A stretch of DNA of 35,332 nucleotides. It comes from Desulfobacteraceae bacterium. Lineage in GTDB: Bacteria > Desulfobacterota > Desulfobacteria > Desulfobacterales > UBA11574. This document shows positions 1,787 to 31,057 of the stretch, piece after piece. Numbering within the stretch: the first letter of the stretch is position 1; the number at the start of each line of letters is the position of its first letter. A program made the translations under genes and the position numbers. The notes beneath the pieces were generated by a model. That model searched no databases and was not told where the DNA came from. It saw nothing but the letters and a program-made list of their open reading frames with translations. The DNA is taken from contig JAUWLP010000006.1 of assembly GCA_030613575.1 (NCBI GenBank), forward strand, positions 1 to 35,332, in the 5' to 3' direction.

Positions 1787-3133
1787 GTGTCACAAATTCT
1801 TATAAAAAACGGCACTGTAGTAACGATGAATTCCGGCAGAGAAATTCTTGAAGCCGATATTCTCATCGAAAACGACCTGATAAAAGAGATAGGTTCCAGC
1901 CTTGACTTAAAAGCAGAAAAAGAGATTGATGCTTCAGGTCTTGTTATAATTCCCGGACTTATTCAATCTCACATTCATCTGACTCAGGTTCTTTTCCGGA
2001 GCCTGGCAGATGACATGGAACTTCTGGACTGGTTAAAAAAACGAATATGGCCCCTGGAAGCATGCCATACTTTTGAGTCCAACGCAGTATCGGCCAGGCT
2101 TGGAATTGCAGAGCTTATTATGGGCGGTACAACCGCAATTATTGACATGGGTACTGTGAATCATACAGAAGCAATATGCGAGACAGTGCAGGATACCGGG
2201 TATCGTGCAGTTGTTGGGAAATGTATGATGGATCATGGAAGCGGAGTGCCGGCCGGTTTAATGGAGAACACCTGGGATTCCATTAAGCAAAGCACATATC
2301 TGATGAACAAATGGCACGGCGCTGCCAACGGAAGGATAAAATACGCATTCACTCCACGATTTGTTGTTTCCTGCAGCGATGATCTTCTTCTTAAAGTAAG
2401 TGATCTGTCACGCGATAACGATATTATTGTTCATACCCATGCTTCTGAAAACCGTTGGGAAATTGCACTGGTTGAGCAGGAGAGAGGCATGCGTAATGTG
2501 AAATACCTGGAAAAATTAGGACTTACCGGAGAAAATCTTGTTCTTGCCCATTGCATCTGGCTCAATGATGAAGAGATGAAAATACTCAGTGATACAGGTA
2601 CGAAAATAGCTCACTGTCCTGGCAGTAATCTTAAACTTGCATCTGGTATTGCTAAAATTCCTGAACTGCTGAAGATGGGAGCAAATGTATCTCTGGCAGC
2701 AGATGGTGCCCCATGCAACAACAACCTGAGCATGTTCAGGGAGATGCGCCATGCTGCTTTGATACAAAAGGTCAGGCTGCTGTCACCAACAGCTCTGCCT
2801 GCACACCAGGTGTTTGAAATGGCCACACTTGGCGGAGCAAAGGCAATGGGAATGGAAGATGAACTGGGAAGTATTGAAACAGGTAAAAAAGCAGATATAG
2901 TTTTAGTTGATCTGAAAAAAGCGCATACTTCGCCCGGCATCAACCGTGATCCTGTTTCCCAACTGGTTTATTCAGCAACTACCCAGGATGTTCAGACCAC
3001 AATTGTTAACGGTAAAATACTTATGCGCGACCGAAAGCTTGAGACCATAGATATTGATGATACAATCCTGGAAGCTGATCGAATCTGCGGAAAATTGCTT
3101 ATGTCAGATAATATAAGACCTCTTTTTGCATAA
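1787..3133 (+). CDS. Amidohydrolase, 5'-deoxyadenosine / MTA / SAH deaminase-like (TRZ/ATZ family)
   Basis: 448 aa from a GTG start with an upstream TAAGGAG. Motifs SHIHLTQVLFRSLADDMELLDWLKKRIWPLEA, HTHASE, AHCIWL, HCPGSNLKLASG and AADGAPCNNNLSMF are typical of the MTA/SAH/5'-deoxyadenosine deaminase group. Confidence 0.85.
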   Translation: MSQILIKNGTVVTMNSGREILEADILIENDLIKEIGSSLDLKAEKEIDASGLVIIPGLIQSHIHLTQVLFRSLADDMELLDWLKKRIWPLEACHTFESNAVSARLGIAELIMGGTTAIIDMGTVNHTEAICETVQDTGYRAVVGKCMMDHGSGVPAGLMENTWDSIKQSTYLMNKWHGAANGRIKYAFTPRFVVSCSDDLLLKVSDLSRDNDIIVHTHASENRWEIALVEQERGMRNVKYLEKLGLTGENLVLAHCIWLNDEEMKILSDTGTKIAHCPGSNLKLASGIAKIPELLKMGANVSLAADGAPCNNNLSMFREMRHAALIQKVRLLSPTALPAHQVFEMATLGGAKAMGMEDELGSIETGKKADIVLVDLKKAHTSPGINRDPVSQLVYSATTQDVQTTIVNGKILMRDRKLETIDIDDTILEADRICGKLLMSDNIRPLFA

Positions 3134-3330: not shown

Positions 3331-4593
3331 ATGAAATATGTAACAGGTGCAAAATGTGTGATTTGCGGCAAGTTTTTTAAAAAAGATCAATTTGAATATA
3401 TCTGCCCGGATCATGGGAATGAAGGAATCCTTGATATCAAGTATGATTATGATTCCATAAAAAAAGATTTTACAAAACATTGTCTTGCCAACAATAAAGA
3501 CCAATCCGTCTGGAGATACGGACCCCTTCTTCCGGTAAATGAGGATTCCCCTGTGCCCAGGCTCTCTGTTGGCCCAACCCCGCTCTACCACCTGGAAAAG
3601 TTAGCCACCAGGCTTGGCATAAAGGATCTATATTTAAAAGACGATGGACGATTGCCCACAGCATCGTTTAAAGACAGGGCAAGCGCAATTGCCGTTGTAA
3701 AGGCATGGGAAAAGAGAGCCAAGGTTATTACAACTGCAAGCACAGGTAATGCAGCTGCTGCATTAAGCGGTCTTTGCGCTTCTGTTGGACAGGAAAATGT
3801 GATCTTTGTTCCAGTATCTGCGCCTAAGGCGAAAATTGCCCAGCTGCTTATGTTTGGATCAAAAGTTATACTTGTTAACGGGACATATGATGACGCATTT
3901 GATCTCTGCCTGAAAGTAGCAAAAGAGTACGGTTGGTACAACAGGAATACAGGCTATAATCCATATATGTCAGAAGGCAAAAAAACCTGCTCTTTTGAAA
4001 TTTGTGAACAGCTAAAGTGGAAAGCACCTGACACAATTTTCGTCAGTGTGGGTGACGGCTGCATAATTGGCGGTATTCATAAAGGGCTTAAGGATCTCCT
4101 TGAAATGGGGTGGATTGACATAATGCCAAGGCTTGTCGGAATCCAGGCTGAAGGCAGCAGCTATATGTATCAGGCCTGGAAAAACAATGAGGATATTATT
4201 ACAAAACCTGCGGTAGTTGCAGAAACTATTGCAGACAGTATCAGTGCCGGACTTCCAAGGGACCGGGTTAAAGCCCTTGATGCAGTAAATAAAACCAAAG
4301 GAGAGTTCATAACGGTAAGTGATGAAGAAATTCTAAAAGCGATTCCCGATCTTGCCGGGAAAACCGGAGTTTTTGCGGAGCCTGCTGGTGCCGCCACATG
4401 GGCAGGCGTTCTAAAAGCTGCAGAAACAGGCATGTTTTCTTGTGATGAATCTGTGGTTGTTATTAATACAGGAAGCGGCTTAAAGGATATTAACAGTGCC
4501 ATGAAATCGGTTGAACTTACAAATATGCAGTACTTCAAAGTTGAACCGTCAATTGATAAATTCAGGATAATTGCATCTTATCTAAAGCTATAA
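3331..4593 (+). CDS. Threonine synthase-like PLP enzyme with N-terminal Cys-rich zinc-ribbon-like segment
   Basis: 420 aa; N-terminal CVICGKFFKKDQFEYICPDHG, PLP-lysine region PTASFKDRASAIAV, STGNAAAALSGLCA, VSVGDGCIIGGIHKGLKDL. Confidence 0.85.
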   Translation: MKYVTGAKCVICGKFFKKDQFEYICPDHGNEGILDIKYDYDSIKKDFTKHCLANNKDQSVWRYGPLLPVNEDSPVPRLSVGPTPLYHLEKLATRLGIKDLYLKDDGRLPTASFKDRASAIAVVKAWEKRAKVITTASTGNAAAALSGLCASVGQENVIFVPVSAPKAKIAQLLMFGSKVILVNGTYDDAFDLCLKVAKEYGWYNRNTGYNPYMSEGKKTCSFEICEQLKWKAPDTIFVSVGDGCIIGGIHKGLKDLLEMGWIDIMPRLVGIQAEGSSYMYQAWKNNEDIITKPAVVAETIADSISAGLPRDRVKALDAVNKTKGEFITVSDEEILKAIPDLAGKTGVFAEPAGAATWAGVLKAAETGMFSCDESVVVINTGSGLKDINSAMKSVELTNMQYFKVEPSIDKFRIIASYLKL

Positions 4594-4634: not shown

Positions 4635-6104
4635 ATGATCGATTTAACTGTTTTCCCGGATGCCTTAAACAGGACAATGGAACATGCCAGGGAAAGAGAC
4701 ATCATTATTCCCACTCTGAAACAGCAGAGGGACCCTTCTTTAATCCCGGAAAAGATACAGGACAGGCTTAAGAACGTAGGTCTCTGGGATCTTGATCCGC
4801 TGAATCTTTTCAGGATTTCATGGCAGAATGAGCCCAAGGAGGTCGGCGGCGGATATACAGGCGTAAACTTCATGGAATTTCCTGAAGAGCTGACAGGTGT
4901 TAAAGCACGTATCATTGCTCTTGTGGGCAAGTATTTTCCAACAGGTGCCCATAAAGTAGGTGCAGCTTTTGGATGTCTTGTTCCAAGACTTGTTACAGGA
5001 CAGTTTGATTCCACAAAACAGAAAGCGGTTTGGCCTTCAACAGGTAATTACTGCAGGGGCGGAGCATATGATTCAGCCCTTCTAGGATGTGAATCCATTG
5101 CAATCCTGCCCGAAGAGATGAGCCGCGAGCGTTTTGAATGGTTGAAAAAAGTTGCTGGCAGGATCATCAAGACCCCAGGTTCTGAAAGTAATGTAAAAGA
5201 GATATTCGATAAATGCTGGGAACTTAGAAATTCAGGTGAAGATCTTGTAATCTTCAACCAGTTTGATGAGTTTGGAAACTACCTGTGGCACCATGAAGTT
5301 ACAGGACCTGCAATGCTTGATGTATTAAAGAGTGTTCTGAAAGAGGGTGACAGGATAAGGGGTTTTGTTTCCGCGACAGGTTCCGGCGGAACAATTGCAT
5401 CAGGTGATTTCCTGAAGAAAATATTCCCTGAATGCAAAATTGTTGCAAGCGAAGCCCTCCAGTGCCCCACACTTCTTAATAACGGATTTGGTGCCCACAG
5501 GATCGAAGGTATTGGTGACAAACATATACCCTGGATTCACAATACTAAAAATACCGACTTTATTGTTGCCATAGATGACAATGTTCCCATGAACCTGATC
5601 CGCCTTTTTAATGAACCTGATGGGAAAAAACTTCTTAAAGAAAAAGGTGTGTCAGATAATATTGTAAACAATCTTGATCTGGTTGGAATTTCAGGAGCTT
5701 CAAACCTTGCATCTGCAATAAAATTCGCAAAGTACTATGAACTTACCGAAAACGACCTGGTGGTGACTGTTCTGACCGATTCAATGGAGATGTACAAAAG
5801 CAGGCTTGATGAGCTGACGCAAGAGTTGGGAAGTTTTTCAGATAAAGATGCTGAAGCTGTTTATTCAAGATATCTACAGGGTCTTACAATCGATTATATG
5901 GAAGAGCTGACCTATTACGGTAAAAAACGCATTCACAATCTGAAATACTATACATGGGTTGAACAACAGGGGAAAACCTATGAAGAGATCCAGGAACAGT
6001 GGTACAATGACTCTTACTGGACCTCTATTGTAGATAAGGCTGAAGAGATTGATTCCCTGATTGATGATTTTAACAAAAAAACCGGACTGCTTGAAAAATT
6101 ATAG
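4635..6104 (+). CDS. Fold-type-II PLP-dependent enzyme (cysteine synthase/TrpB-like, function uncertain)
   Basis: 489 aa with AGGAG RBS at 4621. Motifs FPTGAHKVGAAFG (likely PLP lysine), WPSTGNYCRGGAYDSALLG and VSATGSGGTIASGDFLKK (phosphate-binding glycine-rich loop). Confidence 0.8.
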   Translation: MIDLTVFPDALNRTMEHARERDIIIPTLKQQRDPSLIPEKIQDRLKNVGLWDLDPLNLFRISWQNEPKEVGGGYTGVNFMEFPEELTGVKARIIALVGKYFPTGAHKVGAAFGCLVPRLVTGQFDSTKQKAVWPSTGNYCRGGAYDSALLGCESIAILPEEMSRERFEWLKKVAGRIIKTPGSESNVKEIFDKCWELRNSGEDLVIFNQFDEFGNYLWHHEVTGPAMLDVLKSVLKEGDRIRGFVSATGSGGTIASGDFLKKIFPECKIVASEALQCPTLLNNGFGAHRIEGIGDKHIPWIHNTKNTDFIVAIDDNVPMNLIRLFNEPDGKKLLKEKGVSDNIVNNLDLVGISGASNLASAIKFAKYYELTENDLVVTVLTDSMEMYKSRLDELTQELGSFSDKDAEAVYSRYLQGLTIDYMEELTYYGKKRIHNLKYYTWVEQQGKTYEEIQEQWYNDSYWTSIVDKAEEIDSLIDDFNKKTGLLEKL

Positions 6105-6114
6105 GAAGGAATAA

Positions 6115-7320
6115 ATGAAGCCTGATTACAGAGAGATATTAAAAAAAGCTGAAGAGTATAAACCCCGGATGTCAAAATTTCTCCGCGACATGATTGCAAT
6201 TCCCAGTGAAAGTTGTGATGAAAAAGATGTTGTACTGAGAATTAAACAAGAGATGGAACTTGTGGGTTTCGATTGGATTGAAATTGATCCCATGGGAAAT
6301 ATTCTGGGATATATCGGAAAAGGCAAAACCCTTATCGCAATGGATGCTCACATAGATACTGTTGGTGTTGGAAACATGGAGAACTGGGATTATGACCCCT
6401 ATGAAGGGTATGAAGATGATGAGATCATTGTGGGAAGAGGTGCAAGTGACCAGAAAGGCGGAATGGCTTCCATGGTTTATGCCGGAAAAATAATTAAAGA
6501 CCTGGGCCTGGAAGATGATTATACACTGCTTGTAACAGGAACTGTTCAGGAAGAGGACTGTGACGGTCTATGCTGGCAATATCTTATTGAACAGAGCAAA
6601 ATCAGACCTGATCTTGTAGTCTCCACAGAACCCACTTCATGCCGCATTTACAGGGGGCAGAGGGGAAGAATGGAAATAAAGGTTGAAACAAGCGGTGTCA
6701 GCTGCCATGGTTCGGCTCCTGAAAGAGGAGACAATGCAATTTTTAAAATGGGACCGATTCTCAATGATCTTCAGGAACTGAACCAAAAATTGAAAAATGA
6801 TGATTTCCTGGGTAAAGGCACTCTTACGGTTTCTGAGATATTCTTTTCATCCCCTTCAAGATGTGCTGTCGCTGACGGATGCAGCATCTCAATTGACAGA
6901 CGTCTGACCTTGGGTGAAACATGGGAAGGAGCGCTTGATGAAATCAGAGAACTTACTTCGGTAAAAGAATTTAAGGCTGTTGTTTCAATGTACAACTACG
7001 ACAAACCTGCATACACAGGTCTTGTTTACCCTAGTGAAGCATATTTTCCGGCATGGGTCCTTAATGAAGACCATGATGCCTGCGTAAGCCTTGTATCTGC
7101 ATACAGAGAGCTTTTTAACAAAGATCCTGTTGTTGACAAATGGACATTCTCCACAAACGGTGTCTCTATAATGGGAAGATTTGGAATCCCCTGCATTGGA
7201 TTCGGTCCGGGCCATGAAGATCAGGCACATGCTCCCAACGAAAAAACCTGGAAAAAAGAACTTGTTGAGGCTGCTGCAATGTATGCGGCTATTCCGTCAA
7301 TGTATATGAAAACCACTTAA
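6115..7320 (+). CDS. ygeY: YgeY-like M20-family hydrolase
   Basis: 401 aa; [70 protein letters not shown]20 metallohydrolase motifs in the YgeY arrangement. Confidence 0.85.
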
Positions 7321-7340: not shown

Positions 7341-8291
7341 ATGAAGAAATTTGCTGTAGTCGCCATTGGTGGAAATTCATTGATACGGGACAAACACCAT
7401 TTAAAAGTGGAAGATCAGTACCAAGAAATAAAAAAAACAGTAAAGCACATTGTTGACATCATTGAAGTCGGATATGGGGTTGTTATTACACACGGAAACG
7501 GACCCCAGGTTGGTTTTATCTTTAGAAGATCTGAAATTGCATATGAGCATGAGGGACTTCATTTTGTTCCGCTCCAGAGTTGTGTGGCCGACACCCAGGG
7601 GGCCATAGGCTACCAGATCCAGCAGGCCCTGGACAATGAATTTAAGATAAGGAAGATAGAACAAAAGGCCGTAACCGTTGTTACACAGGTTAAGGTTTCA
7701 AAACAAGATCCGGGCTTTAAAAATCCCACAAAACCCATTGGCACTTTTTGTGAAGATGAAAAGGCCAAGAAGATTGCAAAGGATCATCCTGACTGGAAAA
7801 TGGTATTTGATGCAGGGCGGGGATACAGAAGAGTGGTTCCTTCGCCAAAACCTGTGGAAATCATTGAAATGGATATGGTTAAAGAGCTGGTAAAAAGCAA
7901 TTACAGCGTTATTGCTGTTGGCGGAGGCGGCATTCCGGTTATAGAAAACAAGGATGGAACCCTTGAAGGGGTAAGTGCCGTTATAGATAAGGACTTTGCT
8001 TCGGCATTGCTTGCCAGGAATCTTAAGGCGGATCTACTGATCATCTCAACAGGTGTTGACAGGGTATGTCTCAATTTCGGACAGGAAAATGAAAAAGCTT
8101 TATCTGAAATAACAGCTGACCAGGCAAGAGAGTATATGGAAGATGGCCATTTTGCAGCAGGAAGCATGCTTCCAAAGATACAGGCAATTCTCTGGTTTCT
8201 CCAAAACGGTGGGAAAAAAGCGATCATAACTAAACCTGACAATCTGAAACAGGCGATTAATGGAAGATGTGGAACCCATATAATCAAATAA
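7341..8291 (+). CDS. arcC: Carbamate kinase
   Basis: 316 aa; AIGGNSLIRD, VITHGNGPQVG, AVGGGGIPVIE, AVIDKDFASALLARNLKADLLIISTGVD, GSMLPKIQAILWFL. Confidence 0.93.
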   Translation: MKKFAVVAIGGNSLIRDKHHLKVEDQYQEIKKTVKHIVDIIEVGYGVVITHGNGPQVGFIFRRSEIAYEHEGLHFVPLQSCVADTQGAIGYQIQQALDNEFKIRKIEQKAVTVVTQVKVSKQDPGFKNPTKPIGTFCEDEKAKKIAKDHPDWKMVFDAGRGYRRVVPSPKPVEIIEMDMVKELVKSNYSVIAVGGGGIPVIENKDGTLEGVSAVIDKDFASALLARNLKADLLIISTGVDRVCLNFGQENEKALSEITADQAREYMEDGHFAAGSMLPKIQAILWFLQNGGKKAIITKPDNLKQAINGRCGTHIIK

Positions 8292-8303
8292 ACGGAGGGA
8301 TTT

Positions 8304-10862
8304 GTGATTGAGTTTAAATTAAACGGAAGATCCATATCGTTCAAAGGCAGTGATGACCTTCCCCTTCTTACCTGGCTAAGGGAGGATCAAGGCATTGTCT
8401 CTGTAAAGAACGGATGCTCCGGGCAAGGCGTATGCGGAGCCTGTCTTATTGAAATTAACGGCAAACCGGCTCTGTCGTGCAGAACGCCCATGAAAAAAAT
8501 CAAGGGTGCTGACATCGTTACAATAGAAGGTTTTGCCCCTGTTCTCAAGGATCTCTTAGCAAAAGCCTTTGTTAAACAGGGCGCAGTACAATGCGGATTC
8601 TGTACCCCAGGCTTTCTTTCACGGACAAAAATTCTTCTTCAAAACAACTCTTTTCCCAACCGCGATGAAATTAAAAAAGCTCTTGGTGCAAACCTGTGCC
8701 GCTGCACAGGTTACGCAAAGATAATTGATGCTGTGGTACTTGCTGCAGAATCGCTTAGGGACAAAAAGGAAATTGAGCTTCTTGAAAATGTCGGTGTGGG
8801 TAAAAGCAGACCAAAACATGATGCATATCTCACAGCACTTGGGAAAAGAGAGTTTGTCGATGATATGAGATTTCCCGGCATGCTCTTTGGCGCACTTAGA
8901 TTCAGCGACCATCCCAGGGCAGAGGTAATCAGCATTAATACGGAAAAAGCTGAAAAATTGCCCGGTGTAGTAAGGGTCTTTACCGGAAAAGAGATTCCAG
9001 GTGACAGGATGACCGGCATAATCCATAAGGACTGGCCTGTGATGGTTCTTGAAGGAGAGAAAACCAGATACATCGGTGATGTGCTTGCAGGGGTTGTTGC
9101 CAAAGATGAGGAGACTGCCAGGAAAGCTGTCATACTTATTGAGGTTGAATATAATGTCCTGGAACCTGTTACAGATCCTGTTGAGGCGCTTAAAGACAAA
9201 ATTAAAGTACACGACAAAGGCAACCTGCTTGCAATTACCGAATTTTCCAGGGGCGGTGACATTGATGAAGCATTTAAGTCATCGGCTTATACTGTTTCTG
9301 CCCAATACCGCACACAGCTGCTTGAACATGCCTTTCTTGAGCCTGAGACCGCAATAGCAAGACCCCTTGAAAATAAAGGCATACAGATATACACCCAAAG
9401 CCAGGGAATTTATGAAGACAGGCACGCTATTTCAAGAATTCTTGGACTTCCCAAGGAAAAGGTGATAGCAACCCTTGTTCCCTGCGGCGGTGCCTTTGGT
9501 GGAAAAGAAGATCTGACGGTCCAGGGGCACGCAGCTCTCTTCTCCTATCATCTTAAAAAACCCGTAAAGGTTAGTCTTTCCCGTGAAGAGTCCATCAGGA
9601 TGCATGTAAAGAGACATCCATTTATCATGAAATACAAGATAGGGTGTGATGAAAAAGGTATGTTGACAGCCCTTTCTGCTGATATTATCGGCGATACAGG
9701 TGCCTATGCCTCCCTTGGCGGAGAAGTACTGAACCGTGCAGCAGGCCATGCTTCAGGCGGATATCATGTGCCTGTGGTGGATGTGGTTTCAAGAGCCGTA
9801 TATACCAACAACCTTCCTGCAGGTGCAATGAGGGGATTTGGTGTAAACCAGGTTACATATGCAGTTGAATGCATGATTGACGAGCTTTGCGAGAAAGGCG
9901 GGTTTGATCAATGGCAGTTCAGATTTAATAATGCCTTGAAAAAAGGGTCAATGACTGCAACAGGCCAGGTTTTGGGTGAGGGTGTAGGTTTGAGGGATAC
10001 TCTTAATGCTGTAAAGGATGATTATTACAGTGCCAGATATGCAGGCCTTGCCCTTGGCATAAAAAATATCGGGTTTGGAAACGGCCTGATCGATGAAAGT
10101 GAAGCTGAAATTGAAGTTGTTTCCGATAAAAAAGTCGTAATACATCACGGATGGACCGAGATGGGCCAGGGTGTTGACACCATCTCAAAACAGATCCTCT
10201 ATGATGTGGCAGGATTAGAAGATGTTGAGATCGATGTTGTGTCAAGCACCGATTCCGAGGTTATAGGCGGAACAACAACTGCAAGCAGGGGAACCTTTCT
10301 ATTGGGAAATTCTCTTATTGCTGCCGCGGAAAAGCTGAAAAAAGAACTTAAAAAAACAAGGCTTAAGGATCTTGTTGGAAAAAAATTCAAGGGAAGGTGG
10401 TTCTGTGACTGGACAACAAGACCTGGCAAGAATGTGAAGAACCCTGAAACCCATTTTGCGTACGGGTATGCAGCCCAGGTTGTAACCCTTGACAACAAGG
10501 GCCGAGTCGAGAAAGTGATTGCAGCCCATGATGCAGGCAAAGTGATCAATCCCAAACTTTTTGAAGGCCAGATAGAAGGCGCTGTTATGATGGGTCTTGG
10601 TTATGCTTTTACTGAAAAACTGGAACTTGACAAAGGAGATCTTGTATCTGCAAGCATGGCAAAACTTGGAGTCCCAAAGATAAAATCAATGCCTGAAATA
10701 ATCGTTAAACCAGTTGAGGTAAAAGATCCCAGGGGACCAATGGGAGCAAAGGGTGTGGGTGAGATAGGACTTGTTCCCACGGCACCTGCGGTAATCAATG
10801 CTCTATACAGGTTTGACGGGAAAAGACGTTATGAACTACCTGTTGGACAGAGGATAAAATAA
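8304..10862 (+). CDS. xdhD: Selenium-dependent xanthine dehydrogenase-like molybdenum hydroxylase (fused 2Fe-2S and molybdopterin domains, XdhD-like)
   Basis: 852 aa from a GTG start. N-terminal [37 protein letters not shown] (two 2Fe-2S clusters). C-terminal CGGAFGGKED, AGAMRGFGVNQ, MGAKGVGEIGLVPTAPAVINA (Mo-cofactor and active-site Glu). No FAD domain is seen between them. Confidence 0.88.
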   Translation: MIEFKLNGRSISFKGSDDLPLLTWLREDQGIVSVKNGCSGQGVCGACLIEINGKPALSCRTPMKKIKGADIVTIEGFAPVLKDLLAKAFVKQGAVQCGFCTPGFLSRTKILLQNNSFPNRDEIKKALGANLCRCTGYAKIIDAVVLAAESLRDKKEIELLENVGVGKSRPKHDAYLTALGKREFVDDMRFPGMLFGALRFSDHPRAEVISINTEKAEKLPGVVRVFTGKEIPGDRMTGIIHKDWPVMVLEGEKTRYIGDVLAGVVAKDEETARKAVILIEVEYNVLEPVTDPVEALKDKIKVHDKGNLLAITEFSRGGDIDEAFKSSAYTVSAQYRTQLLEHAFLEPETAIARPLENKGIQIYTQSQGIYEDRHAISRILGLPKEKVIATLVPCGGAFGGKEDLTVQGHAALFSYHLKKPVKVSLSREESIRMHVKRHPFIMKYKIGCDEKGMLTALSADIIGDTGAYASLGGEVLNRAAGHASGGYHVPVVDVVSRAVYTNNLPAGAMRGFGVNQVTYAVECMIDELCEKGGFDQWQFRFNNALKKGSMTATGQVLGEGVGLRDTLNAVKDDYYSARYAGLALGIKNIGFGNGLIDESEAEIEVVSDKKVVIHHGWTEMGQGVDTISKQILYDVAGLEDVEIDVVSSTDSEVIGGTTTASRGTFLLGNSLIAAAEKLKKELKKTRLKDLVGKKFKGRWFCDWTTRPGKNVKNPETHFAYGYAAQVVTLDNKGRVEKVIAAHDAGKVINPKLFEGQIEGAVMMGLGYAFTEKLELDKGDLVSASMAKLGVPKIKSMPEIIVKPVEVKDPRGPMGAKGVGEIGLVPTAPAVINALYRFDGKRRYELPVGQRIK

Positions 10863-12133
10863 TGACTCTTTATATAAAAGATGCAACCTTTATTGACTGG
10901 CAGGGTTTAACCTTTAAAAAAACTGATATAGAGGTGGATCAGGGGATAGACGGCGGAATAAACTTGGTTGACGTCATTGACCTTAAACCCGGTGACAGAT
11001 CAAGAGTCCTGGATGCAAAGGGCAAGTTTGTAACAAAATCGTTTGGCTGCGGTCATCATCATATCTATTCAACACTTGCCAGGGGCATGCCGGCACCTGC
11101 CAAAACTCCTGAAAATTTTGTTGAGATCCTGAAATACATCTGGTGGAACCTGGACAAGAACCTTGACCTTGACATGATAAAGGCCAGTGCACTTGCAGCG
11201 GCTCTTTTTTGCGCCAAAAACGGTGTCACTTTTGTTATTGATCACCATGCCTCCCCTTTTGCTGTGGAGGGTTCGCTCTCTATCATTAAACAGGCATTTG
11301 ACTTCATTGGCATCTCCCATCTCCTCTGTTATGAAATTTCAGACCGTGGTGGCGAGAAAATAAGAGATGCAGGGCTCTGTGAAACCGAAAACTTCCTTAA
11401 AGCAGGAAACCAGGGCCATGTCGGCCTTCATGCATCCTTTACAGTGGAAGATGATCTTCTTGAAAAAGCTGTAAAACTTGCTGGAAAGTACAATACCGGT
11501 ATCCATGTCCATGTTGCCGAAGACCTGGCTGATCAGGACCACTGTGTGAAAAATTATAAAAAAAGAGTTGTCCAGCGTTTTTCAGATGCAGGTGTACTTG
11601 ATCTTTCCGGATCAATCCTGGGCCACTGTATCCATCTTGATGAGGATGAGAAAAAAACTCTTAAGGATTCAGGCGTATGGGTGGTAGAAAATGTTGAAAG
11701 CAACCTGAACAACAATGTGGGGCTTACTGATTATTCAGCCCATGGTTCAAATATTATGCTTGGAACGGACGGTATGCATTCCGATATGCTGAGAAGCGCC
11801 AAATCGGCATTCTTTGTGGGACAGGGCACAGAAGGGATAAGTTTTCCGGAAATTTATCAAAGGTTCAGGAATATTCACAGATTTATAAAAGAGAACAGAT
11901 ACAGAGGAGATAGTGACAACAACCTGGTTGTCCTTGATTACAACACTCCAACTCAGATGAGTCAGGATAATTTCCTGGGGCACTTTTTGTTCGGCATTGA
12001 GTCGTCACATGTGGATAGTGTCATATCTTCAGGCAGGCTTATTGTGGAAAACAGAAAACTTATTACAGCAAATGAAGAGGACATTTTGTCTTTTGCAAAA
12101 GAGATGGGTAATAAACTCTGGAAAAAACTATAA
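10862..12133 (+). CDS. ssnA: SsnA-like amidohydrolase
   Basis: 423 aa. ATG overlaps the xdhD stop (TAATG). Motifs FGCGHHHIYSTLARGMPAPAKTPENFVEILKYIWWNLD, HVHVAED, GHCIHLDEDE, NVESNLNNNVGL, GTDGMHSD. Confidence 0.85.
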   Translation: MTLYIKDATFIDWQGLTFKKTDIEVDQGIDGGINLVDVIDLKPGDRSRVLDAKGKFVTKSFGCGHHHIYSTLARGMPAPAKTPENFVEILKYIWWNLDKNLDLDMIKASALAAALFCAKNGVTFVIDHHASPFAVEGSLSIIKQAFDFIGISHLLCYEISDRGGEKIRDAGLCETENFLKAGNQGHVGLHASFTVEDDLLEKAVKLAGKYNTGIHVHVAEDLADQDHCVKNYKKRVVQRFSDAGVLDLSGSILGHCIHLDEDEKKTLKDSGVWVVENVESNLNNNVGLTDYSAHGSNIMLGTDGMHSDMLRSAKSAFFVGQGTEGISFPEIYQRFRNIHRFIKENRYRGDSDNNLVVLDYNTPTQMSQDNFLGHFLFGIESSHVDSVISSGRLIVENRKLITANEEDILSFAKEMGNKLWKKL

Positions 12134-12210
12134 AATTTGATCCGGATTTGTAACCTGAGTACAGGCAGGCAAATAAAGGATGCCAAACAATAAAAAACCT
12201 GGAGGATATC

Positions 12211-13407
12211 TTGGACAAAATTAGAATTATTGAAAGTATAAAATCCTTGTCTGTGAAAAAAACAGACAACATGTATCTCAACGATTTTTTCCTGACATGG
12301 AACAAAAAAGATGATGAAATTGCAGCTGTATTTCAGGTGGCGGAAATCCTTCGCTCAATGAGAAAGAATAACATCTCTCCCAGGGTTTTCGATTCAGGAC
12401 TTGCTGTGTCGCTCTTCAGAGACAACTCAACAAGAACACGTTTCAGCTTTTCTTCGGCATGCAACCTTTTAGGTCTTACCATCCAGGATCTTGATGAGGG
12501 AAAATCCCAGATTGCCCACGGAGAAACTATAAGGGAAACTGCAAACATGGTATCTTTCCTTGCCGACGTCATAGGAATCAGGGATGATATGTTTCTTGGT
12601 GCTGGTCACACATACATGAAAGAGGTTGCAGCATCCGTACACCAGGGTTATGAAGAGAGAGTGCTTCCCCAACGTCCCACACTGGTTAACCTGCAGTGCG
12701 ATATTGACCATCCTACCCAGACAATGTCAGATGCACTTCACCTGATCAAATGGTTTGGCGGAATTGATAAGCTGAAAGGTAAAAAAATAGCCATGACCTG
12801 GGCATACTCACCTTCCTACGGCAAACCCCTTTCCGTACCCCAGGGAGTTATCGGGCTTATGACAAGGTTTGGAATGGATGTACGCTTTGCGTATCCGGAA
12901 GGTTATAATGTTATGGATGAAGTCGTTGATATAGCAGAGAAAAATGCTGAAAAAAGCAACGGAAAGTTTGAGATCGTAAATTCAATGGAAGATGCTTTTA
13001 AGGATGCTGATATTGTTTATCCAAAGAGCTGGGCTCCTTATGCTGTTATGGAAGAAAGAACAGAGCTTCTACGTGCAGGCGATGATAACGGACTTAAGGA
13101 CCTTGAGAAGAAATGTCTGGAAAACAATAAAAAATTTGTTTCATGGGAATGCACCCGGGAACTTATGAATACAACAAAGAACAAAAACGCTCTTTACATG
13201 CACTGCCTGCCTGCCGACATTACAGACGTAAGCTGTGAACAGGGCGAGGTCCAGGCTGATGTATTTGATCAGTACAGAGTCCCCCAGTATATCCAGGCAG
13301 GGTACAAACCATACATAATTGCAGCAATGATTTTCCTAAGCAGATTTGCAAATCCTGCTGAAAAGCTCATGGAGGTTATGGATAGAGCAGACAGAAGAAT
13401 TTATTAG
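12211..13407 (+). CDS. ygeW: YgeW-like knotted carbamoyltransferase
   Basis: 398 aa from a TTG start after GGAGG. SLFRDNSTRTRFSF (carbamoyl-phosphate site), DEGKSQIAHGETIRETA, QCDIDHPTQTMSDALHL, HCLPADI: transcarbamoylase motifs in the YgeW arrangement. Confidence 0.9.
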   Translation: MDKIRIIESIKSLSVKKTDNMYLNDFFLTWNKKDDEIAAVFQVAEILRSMRKNNISPRVFDSGLAVSLFRDNSTRTRFSFSSACNLLGLTIQDLDEGKSQIAHGETIRETANMVSFLADVIGIRDDMFLGAGHTYMKEVAASVHQGYEERVLPQRPTLVNLQCDIDHPTQTMSDALHLIKWFGGIDKLKGKKIAMTWAYSPSYGKPLSVPQGVIGLMTRFGMDVRFAYPEGYNVMDEVVDIAEKNAEKSNGKFEIVNSMEDAFKDADIVYPKSWAPYAVMEERTELLRAGDDNGLKDLEKKCLENNKKFVSWECTRELMNTTKNKNALYMHCLPADITDVSCEQGEVQADVFDQYRVPQYIQAGYKPYIIAAMIFLSRFANPAEKLMEVMDRADRRIY

Positions 13408-22256: not shown

Positions 22257-22943
22257 ATGTTTGATAATATGAATGAAAAAGAGCAAATATTCACAATCCT
22301 GAAACAGTTGGCGAATCTGGTAACCACGATGTTTGGAGGCAACTGCGAGGTTGCGATTCACGATTTAACGACCGCAAATAGGGGGCTGATTCACATAACC
22401 GGCAACGTCACCAGGAGAAAACCGGGTGCTCCTGTTACAGATGCCGTTATTAAATCCCTTATCAGGGACGGCAATGATGTGCAGGACAGACATTGCTTCA
22501 TGACCATAACCGATGACGGCAGGGAACTTAAATCGTCCACAAGTTATATAAGAGACAGCAAGGGTGAAGTAATAGCTGCTTTTTGCATTAACTTTAATAC
22601 AACAGACTATCTCAATGCCATTCAGCTTTTAGAGTCTTTTGTAAACAGGGGGATAAGCAGCGCCCCTGCTGCAAATATGCCTGAAAAGATGTCTTTTTCC
22701 ATAGAGGGCACGGTGGATTCCCTTTTTGAACAGGCTGTTGCAGAAATAGGGAAAAGACCTGCCACCATGACAACTTATGAAAAAATAAGACTTGTCAGAA
22801 TCCTTGAGAGAAAAGGGACATTTCAGATCAGGGGTGTGGTAAGCCAGGTGGCATTAAGGCTCGGTGTATCTAATTTCACAATCTATAATTATCTGAAAAA
22901 GATCCGTGCTGCAAATGGAACAGCAATTAGAGATGTTATATGA
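22257..22943 (+). CDS. YheO/DauR-like PAS-HTH transcriptional regulator
   Basis: 228 aa; N-terminal LANLVTTMFGGNCEVAIHDL...GNVTRRKPGAPVTD (YheO PAS-like) and C-terminal YEKIRLVRILERKGTFQIRGVVSQVALRLGVSNFTIYNYLKKI (DauR-like HTH). Confidence 0.87.
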   Translation: MFDNMNEKEQIFTILKQLANLVTTMFGGNCEVAIHDLTTANRGLIHITGNVTRRKPGAPVTDAVIKSLIRDGNDVQDRHCFMTITDDGRELKSSTSYIRDSKGEVIAAFCINFNTTDYLNAIQLLESFVNRGISSAPAANMPEKMSFSIEGTVDSLFEQAVAEIGKRPATMTTYEKIRLVRILERKGTFQIRGVVSQVALRLGVSNFTIYNYLKKIRAANGTAIRDVI

Positions 22944-28464: not shown

Positions 28465-29637
28465 ATGAAAAGTAAAACTTCGAATTTTTTATTTACCTCC
28501 GAGTCGGTCACAGAGGGACATCCTGACAAGGTGGCGGACCAGATATCAGACAATATCCTGGATAAGATGTTGGAGCAGGATCCAAAATCCCGAGTGGCCT
28601 GCGAGACCATGGTAACCACCGGTATGGCTATAATTGCAGGCGAAATTACAACCGAGGCTTACGTGGATATGCCTGAGGTCGTAAGACAGACCATCAAAGA
28701 CATTGGTTACAGTAACTCCTCCATGGGTTTTGACTGGGAAACTTGTGCCGTAATTTCCACAATTGATAAACAATCCCCGGATATCGCGGCAGGTGTTGAC
28801 GAGGGAGACGGGCTTTTCAAGGAACAGGGTGCAGGGGATCAGGGCCTTATGTTCGGCTATGCGTGCAAAGACACACAACCCCTGATGCCAATGCCCATCT
28901 ACCTGGCTCATCGGCTAACCGCAAGACTGGCACATGTGCGTAAATCAGGAAAGCTACCCTGGCTCAGACCTGACGGTAAGTCGCAGGTAACTGTGGAATA
29001 TGAAAATTGGAAGCCGCTTAGAGTTCACACTGTGGTTATTGCGGCCCAGCATGCTCCGGATGTGGATTACGATACTCTTCGGGAAGCAATTGTGGAGGAA
29101 GTAATCAGGGATGTAATCCCCGAAGAAATGCTGGACAAAGATACCCAGTATTTTATTAATACTACAGGCCGGTTTGTTGGAGGCGGTCCTCTGGGCGACT
29201 GCGGCCTTACGGGGCGAAAAATCATTATGGACACCTACGGAGGATTCGGCTACCACGGAGGCGGCGCCTTTTCAGGGAAAGACCCTTCCAAGGTGGACAG
29301 AAGCGCCTCATACATGTGCCGCTATATTGCAAAAAATATCGTGGCAGCAGATCTTGCCACAAAGTGTGAAATACAGGTCGCATACACTATTGGACGGGCT
29401 GAGCCGGTGTCTGTGCTGGTGGGCGCCTACAGTACGGGAGTTGTTTCCAGCCAGGAATTAACCGAAATCGTAAAAAAGAAATTTGACCTCCGCCCTGCCG
29501 CGATTATAGAAAGGCTGGATTTGCTCAGGCCAATATATCGAAAAACCTGTAATTATGGGCATTTTGGGCGGGAATTGCCGGAATTTACCTGGGAAAAGAT
29601 AGACATGGCGGAGGATCTCAAAAGGGCGGTGAAGTAA
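28465..29637 (+). CDS. metK: S-adenosylmethionine synthetase
   Basis: 390 aa; [80 protein letters not shown]. Confidence 0.97.
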
Positions 29638-29648
29638 GGCATAAAAAA

Positions 29649-29693
29649 AAGTGACTAAAGTGAGCTAAAGTGACTAAAGTGACTAAAGTAAAG
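29649..29693 (+). repeat. 9-bp-period GTGACTAAA repeat tract between metK and ahcY
   Basis: AAGTGACTAAAGTGAGCTAAAGTGACTAAAGTGACTAAAGTAAAGG; same unit as the 13516/13772 tracts. Confidence 0.8.
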
Positions 29694-29728
29694 GAAGAAA
29701 TAAATTTTCCAATTATTGAACGGAGTAA

Positions 29729-31057
<1,329 letters not shown>

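What the first reader, a model, noticed from the sequence alone, without database searches (positions are those of the whole stretch)
4635..6104. 489-aa PLP enzyme as a candidate non-orthologous replacement for diaminopropionate ammonia-lyase
It sits directly upstream of ygeY and has fold-type-II PLP motifs (GAHKVGAAFG, VSATGSGGTIASG) with a C-terminal extension of roughly 100 aa beyond the expected core. In the E. coli-type pathway the YgeY/YgeW products feed a PLP ammonia-lyase (YgeX). Its placement suggests it acts on 2,3-diaminopropionate, a ureido derivative or a related amino acid rather than making cysteine.
Basis: inference. Interest (0 to 1): 0.75.

Follow-up and report, generated by a model that had tools for sequence, protein, structure and literature searches.

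The report
Partnered PLP enzyme in uric-acid cluster
This gene encodes an uncharacterised vitamin-B6-dependent enzyme that almost always travels with a second such enzyme in bacteria that break down uric acid without oxygen; together the pair seems to replace or extend the last known step of that pathway, but the neighbour, not this gene, is the likelier stand-in for the known E. coli enzyme.

Summary
Window 4635-6104 (+) encodes a 489-aa fold-type-II PLP enzyme ("P1") 10 bp upstream of ygeY, inside a reductive uric-acid cluster (YgeY, carbamate kinase, Se-XDH, SsnA, YgeW, YgfK) that lacks ygeX. P1 is not CysK, CBS or TrpB: it is a separate monophyletic family. Its link to YgeY is strong: in 395 genomes of the phylum it is in 6 of 11 YgeY genomes and 4 of 384 others (p=2e-8), and every YgeY genome has P1 or YgeX. 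51 of 59 P1 genomes carry its ortholog. 63 of 80 informative P1 loci have a second PALP gene within 5 kb, always on the same strand. In a Mycoplasmatota genome P1 is followed twice by a true YgeX, with no ThrC-like gene. So the ThrC-like neighbour is the better candidate YgeX substitute and P1 is its constant partner. P1 keeps the CysK/CBS catalytic set plus an invariant Asp295 that aligns with Asp232 of the cysteine hydroxyl-lyase Fn1055. Beta-substitution or elimination on 2,3-diaminopropionate or a ureido-alanine is my best guess, untested.

The parts
4635..6104 (+). P1: 489-aa fold-type-II PLP enzyme of an unnamed CBS/CysK-superfamily clade, with conserved N- and C-terminal extensions
   Evidence: ORF and translation; PALP 57 bits; AlphaFold2 model pLDDT 90.6; Foldseek best matches CBS and CysK; own clade in tree 100/100
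4944..4973 (+). GAHKVGAAFG motif, residues 104-113; K107 is the presumed PLP Schiff-base lysine
   Evidence: Invariant G104, H106, K107, V108 in 37 homologs; aligned with the CysK lysine motif
5037..5048 (+). STGN loop, residues 135-138 (CysK TSGN, DAL TDGN position): no Asp where YgeX has Asp120
   Evidence: Invariant in 37 homologs; YgeX alignment shows invariant D120
5511..5522 (+). IGDK, residues 293-296: invariant Asp295 aligns with Asp232 of Fn1055 (wild type D in 5b53, N in the D232N mutant 5b55)
   Evidence: alignment; conservation; Fn1055 chemistry in PMC12940168
5805..6101 (+). C-terminal helical extension, residues 391-489, with the conserved HNLKYYTWVEQQG motif
   Evidence: Model secondary structure; conservation; no Pfam family
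3331..4593 (+). ThrC-like PLP enzyme with an N-terminal Cys-rich (zinc-ribbon-like) segment; constant partner of P1 and the better candidate YgeX substitute
   Evidence: NF006050 304.8 bits vs cut-off 303; A2 family; co-occurrence; model
6115..7320 (+). YgeY hydrolase
   Evidence: TIGR03526 707 bits
7341..8291 (+). Carbamate kinase
   Evidence: NF009007 455 bits, TIGR00746 378 bits
8304..10862 (+). Selenium-dependent xanthine dehydrogenase type enzyme (likely urate reductase by position)
   Evidence: TIGR03311 928 bits
10862..12133 (+). SsnA-type aminohydrolase
   Evidence: NF005540 376 bits, below the 444 cut-off
12211..13407 (+). YgeW carbamoyltransferase
   Evidence: TIGR03316 701 bits
13893..17168 (+). 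YgfK reductase
   Evidence: TIGR03315 901 bits

Best explanation
P1 is one half of a two-PLP-enzyme module at the amino-acid end of the anaerobic reductive uric-acid (2,3-diureidopropionate) pathway. Shown: P1 is a distinct family, sits in the operon ThrC-like - P1 - YgeY - carbamate kinase - XDH - SsnA - YgeW, and co-occurs with the ThrC-like gene and with YgeY. Inferred: the ThrC-like enzyme does the alpha,beta-elimination of 2,3-diaminopropionate that YgeX does in E. coli. P1 acts on 2,3-diaminopropionate or a beta-ureido-alanine precursor. It would form an external aldimine through K107, expel the beta-nitrogen to give aminoacrylate, and release either pyruvate plus ammonia or, with Asp295 activating water as in Fn1055, serine.
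For: Operon position. P1-YgeY association 6/11 against 4/384, p=2e-8, and no YgeY genome lacking both P1 and YgeX. ThrC-like ortholog in 51 of 59 P1 genomes against 6 of 395 in the phylum panel at over 450 bits. Second PALP gene within 5 kb, same strand, at 63 of 80 informative loci. P1 - YgeX adjacency twice in Mycoplasmatota zrk6, which has no ThrC-like gene, implying a ThrC-like/YgeX swap beside a constant P1. The P1 family also lies in operons with HyuA, carbamoyltransferase and carbamate kinase genes in Anaerolineae. Catalytic lysine, STGN loop, Gln209 and Asp295 invariant. ThrC-like profile close to YgeX.
Against: No biochemistry; substrate and product are guesses. About a fifth of informative P1 loci show no second PALP within 5 kb, and G237, G253 and G260 have no YgeX or close ThrC-like gene, with P1 beside an M20 hydrolase and a dihydropyrimidine-dehydrogenase-type gene. 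21 of 48 P1 genomes have no YgeY above threshold, so P1 may serve a wider route. The named genomes were chosen by similarity to P1, so their counts are not a random sample.
Confidence: 0.45

Rival explanations
1. One reading: P1 itself is the non-orthologous replacement of YgeX, cleaving 2,3-diaminopropionate to pyruvate and ammonia; the ThrC-like neighbour does something else.
For: All five YgeY genomes without YgeX have P1, four of the five have the ThrC-like gene, and the five without P1 have YgeX. G144 has P1-YgeY-YgeW with no YgeX and no close ThrC-like ortholog. P1 occupies the slot next to ygeY.
Against: P1 sits beside a true YgeX twice in zrk6. YgeX and P1 coexist in G376 and G474. G144 also has a divergent PALP gene just upstream of P1. 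In G065 the ThrC-like gene, not P1, is next to YgeY and YgeW. P1 lacks the YgeX Asp120; so does the ThrC-like protein.
Confidence: 0.25
2. P1 and the ThrC-like enzyme divide the two enantiomers: one cleaves L-, the other D-2,3-diaminopropionate, doing together what the non-stereospecific YgeX does alone.
For: E. coli YgeX is equally active on both isomers (PMC12507026), and the stereochemistry of the pathway is an open issue (PMC12990295). The two genes travel together. Both lack the YgeX Asp120, named as a potential catalytic residue in PMC4000059.
Against: Does not explain why zrk6 keeps P1 beside YgeX. No residue evidence says which enantiomer either enzyme would take.
Confidence: 0.12
3. 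P1 is a biosynthetic beta-replacement enzyme (cysteine or cystathionine synthase, or a relative using a pathway amine as donor) that happens to sit in purine clusters.
For: Closest sequence and fold matches are CysK and CBS, and the core catalytic motifs match CysK.
Against: Scores 105.8 against a cut-off of 351 for CysK and 79.5 against 510 for CBS; separate clade. A CysK-like gene lies elsewhere in the genome (G000:C174). Linked to catabolic rather than sulfur genes. Asp295 takes the place of the Ala of CysK.
Confidence: 0.08

Closest known systems
YgeX, 2,3-diaminopropionate ammonia-lyase (TIGR03528; E. coli b2871)
   Same: Fold-type-II PLP enzyme next to ygeY in a reductive uric-acid cluster; weak profile similarity to P1 around the GN loop
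   Different: P1 does not match TIGR03528 or NF006058 at E 0.001, has STGN instead of TDGN (no Asp120), is about 90 aa longer, and coexists with YgeX in several genomes
CysK / cystathionine beta-synthase superfamily (TIGR01139, TIGR01137)
   Same: Best sequence and structure matches; Schiff-base Lys, S-T-G-N loop, Gln209, GSGGT phosphate loop
   Different: Far below family cut-offs, own clade with a long stem, two extra terminal regions, invariant GDKH in place of the CysK GAGF loop, catabolic gene context
Fn1055 cysteine hydroxyl-lyase of Fusobacterium nucleatum (5b53, 5b55)
   Same: HRIEGI(S/G)D segment with Asp232 equivalent to P1 Asp295; Fn1055 makes serine and H2S from cysteine by beta-replacement (PMC12940168)
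   Different: About 25% identical overall, about 150 aa shorter; P1 activity unknown
Reductive uric-acid cluster of E. coli and C. difficile (PMC12507026)
   Same: YgeY, YgeW, SsnA, YgfK, carbamate kinase and an XDH-type enzyme present
   Different: No YgeX or HyuA found in the held genome; P1 plus the ThrC-like enzyme at the terminal step instead
Threonine synthase family NF006050/PRK08197 (for the neighbour at 3331-4593)
   Same: Above the curated cut-off by 2 bits, same fold
   Different: Own clade apart from the other ThrC-type genes sampled, catabolic context, SVGDGC where ThrC has a VGNAGN-type loop

Membership tests
2,3-diaminopropionate ammonia-lyase (YgeX) | Score over the curated TIGR03528 cut-off (532 bits) | tested here: not met
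   P1 has no match at E 0.001; the only hit in the held genome is the ThrC-like gene at 36 bits
2,3-diaminopropionate ammonia-lyase (YgeX) | Asp120 in the TDGNHG loop (invariant in the YgeX alignment) | tested here: not met
   P1 has invariant S135-T136-G137-N138; the ThrC-like protein also has STGN
2,3-diaminopropionate ammonia-lyase (YgeX) | Linkage to ygeY/ygeW | tested here: met
   Adjacent in the window and several other loci; genome-level association p=2e-8
2,3-diaminopropionate ammonia-lyase (YgeX) | Pyruvate and ammonia from D- and L-2,3-diaminopropionate | not testable with these tools
   Needs an enzyme assay
Cysteine synthase (CysK/CysM) | Score over the curated cut-off (351 bits TIGR01139) | tested here: not met
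   105.8 bits
Cysteine synthase (CysK/CysM) | Falls within the CysK/CysM clade | tested here: not met
   P1 is one clade, 100/100, beside the CysK/CysM clade and not inside it
Cystathionine beta-synthase | Score over the curated cut-off (510 bits TIGR01137) | tested here: not met
   79.5 bits, though best Foldseek hits are CBS
Fn1055-type cysteine hydroxyl-lyase | Asp at position 232 of the HRIEGI-D loop | tested here: met
   P1 D295, invariant in 37 homologs
Fn1055-type cysteine hydroxyl-lyase | Beta-replacement by water | not testable with these tools
   Needs an enzyme assay
Fold-type-II PLP (PALP, PF00291) | Pfam gathering score and fold | tested here: met
   57.3 bits vs 35; model matches fold-II structures with target TM about 0.8
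Reductive uric-acid gene cluster | XDH-type reductase, YgfK or UacX, SsnA, YgeW or UacY, YgeY together | tested here: met
   HyuA and YgeX not found in the held, 82% complete genome

The most novel reading that the evidence does not exclude
The last step of anaerobic uric-acid degradation has a second, non-homologous solution in many environmental bacteria (Anaerolineae, Desulfobacterota and others). It is a co-dependent pair of PLP enzymes, P1 and a recruited threonine-synthase-like lyase, in which P1 performs a reaction not present in the E. coli pathway, such as water-dependent conversion of 2,3-diaminopropionate to serine or direct release of urea from ureido-alanine.
Probability: 0.3. Interest if true: 0.75.

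Novelty: new variant of a known kind. Interest (0 to 1): 0.6.

Why it matters
The reductive uric-acid pathway was only worked out in 2025 (PMC12507026), with YgeX as its last enzyme. Its genome survey counted YgeX by the broad Pfam family PF00291, which P1 and the ThrC-like protein also match, so this variation would have been invisible. A widely distributed PLP family with no name and a consistent genetic partner gives a directly testable enzyme function. It would also bear on the open questions of stereochemistry and ureido order raised in PMC12990295. The ThrC-like partner is probably being annotated as threonine synthase in many genomes.

Tried and rejected
P1 as an ordinary cysteine synthase, CBS or TrpB: rejected on scores and tree. 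P1 as a simple one-for-one YgeX replacement: first favoured by the phylum panel, then weakened by P1-YgeX adjacency in zrk6 and coexistence in G376 and G474. P1 and the ThrC-like protein as close homologs: rejected, profile comparison not significant. G144 first looked like a P1-only case until a divergent PALP gene was found just upstream of P1. The C-terminal extension as a known domain: no Pfam hit. Membership in other NCBIfam PLP families: nothing near a cut-off. Some alignment calls failed on stop codons at the ends of ranges and were repeated. The main DAL structure paper (PMC3370218) is not held.

Full report
What is there. The reading frame at 4635-6104 (+) is real: 489 aa, ATG start, a plausible ribosome site, with homologs of 43-81% identity in several phyla. 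It is the second gene of a tight run: ThrC-like (3331-4593), 41 bp, P1, 10 bp, YgeY, 20 bp, carbamate kinase, 12 bp, selenium-type xanthine dehydrogenase, SsnA, YgeW, then YgfK, an 8-oxoguanine deaminase, XdhABC, a regulator and a BMP-type ABC transporter. This is the gene set of the reductive uric-acid pathway (PMC12507026), minus YgeX and HyuA, neither of which is found in the held genome. That genome is only 82% complete, but four close relatives with P1 (G432-G435) also have no YgeX over cut-off.

What the protein is. P1 passes Pfam PALP but is far below the cut-offs of every curated PLP family (best CysK, 105.8 against 351). An AlphaFold2 model from 37 homologs is confident (pLDDT 90.6); its nearest solved structures are CBS and CysK, and YgeX is not in the top 50. 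In a 77-sequence maximum-likelihood tree P1 is one clade with full support, beside and not within CysK/CysM. It has an N-terminal extension of about 85 residues and a helical C-terminal one of about 99 with an invariant HxLKYxTWxEQQ core. Neither matches a known domain.

Active site. K107, S135-T136-G137-N138, Q209, the GSxGT loop and T381-D382 are invariant or nearly so. YgeX has an invariant Asp120 in its TDGN loop; P1 does not, and nor does the ThrC-like neighbour. P1 has an invariant Asp295 in the loop where CysK has Ala. Alignment to 5b53 and to its mutant 5b55, described as D232N, places Asp295 on Asp232 of Fn1055. A review describes Fn1055 as a cysteine hydroxyl-lyase making serine and H2S by beta-replacement, with Thr73, Ser74, Gln147 and Asp232 as key residues (PMC12940168). 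This is a lead to chemistry, not proof.

Link to YgeY and YgeX. In 395 genomes drawn from the phylum, YgeY occurs in 11, P1 in 10, YgeX in 16. P1 and YgeY co-occur in 6 (p=2e-8, not tree-corrected). The five YgeY genomes without YgeX all have P1; the five without P1 all have YgeX; one has both.

The partner. The gene upstream of P1 is also a fold-type-II PLP enzyme. It barely passes a threonine synthase cut-off (304.8 against 303) and forms its own clade. Orthologs over 450 bits are in 51 of 59 P1 genomes and in 6 of 395 panel genomes, five of which have P1 (p=2e-8). At 63 of 80 informative P1 loci a second PALP gene lies within 5 kb, always on the same strand. In Mycoplasmatota zrk6, with no ThrC-like gene, P1 is followed by a true YgeX at two separate loci. 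In G144 the partner is a divergent PALP gene. In G065 the ThrC-like gene is with YgeY and YgeW while P1 is elsewhere. In G376 and G474, YgeX and the ThrC-like/P1 pair lie on one contig. Profile comparison puts the ThrC-like family nearer to YgeX (E 1.5e-22) than P1 is (3.8e-6).

Conclusion. The simplest reading is that the ThrC-like enzyme and YgeX are interchangeable and P1 is a constant partner acting on the same or a neighbouring substrate. Exceptions remain: some P1 genes stand alone, three genomes (G237, G253, G260) have P1 beside a dihydropyrimidine-dehydrogenase-type reductase and an M20 hydrolase with no partner, and 21 of 48 P1 genomes lack YgeY. No step of the chemistry is shown.

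Noticed in passing
window 3331-4593: Would be auto-named threonine synthase (2 bits over cut-off) but belongs to a clade tied to purine catabolism; likely misannotated widely.
   Followed up: partly
window 22257-22943: YheO-like PAS plus HTH regulator (PF08348, PF13309); homologs sit beside YgeX in G376 and G474 and beside YgeY in zrk6, so it is a candidate regulator of the pathway.
   Followed up: partly
window 12133-12211: HyuA is missing between SsnA and YgeW, where the Desulfobacula relative L053 has it (8000-9370); no D-hydantoinase found in the held genome, so the hydantoin-opening step is unassigned.
   Followed up: partly
window 10862-12133: SsnA-type protein scores below the curated SsnA cut-off (376 against 444) yet sits in a full cluster.
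   Followed up: no
L044, L046, L047: P1 homologs in clusters with a PreA-like dihydropyrimidine dehydrogenase and an M20 hydrolase (plus XDH genes in L044 or TRAP transporters in L046/L047), without YgeX or a close ThrC-like gene: possibly another heterocycle route.
   Followed up: partly
L059, L061, L066, L074, L079 and other Anaerolineae loci: A PgfS-type glycosyltransferase gene is conserved between the ThrC-like gene and P1, and an unknown protein of about 190 aa follows P1.
   Followed up: no
L082, L089, L106, L108: The P1 cluster is followed by a conserved block with a NuoN-like protein and SelB.
   Followed up: no
window 28465-31057: MetK and AhcY follow the purine cluster, and a 5'-deoxyadenosine-deaminase-like gene (1787-3133) precedes it: a possible S-adenosylmethionine salvage link.
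   Followed up: no
G457 (zrk6), L087 and L219: Two copies of a P1-YgeX gene pair in one 2.2-Mb Mycoplasmatota genome.
   Followed up: yes
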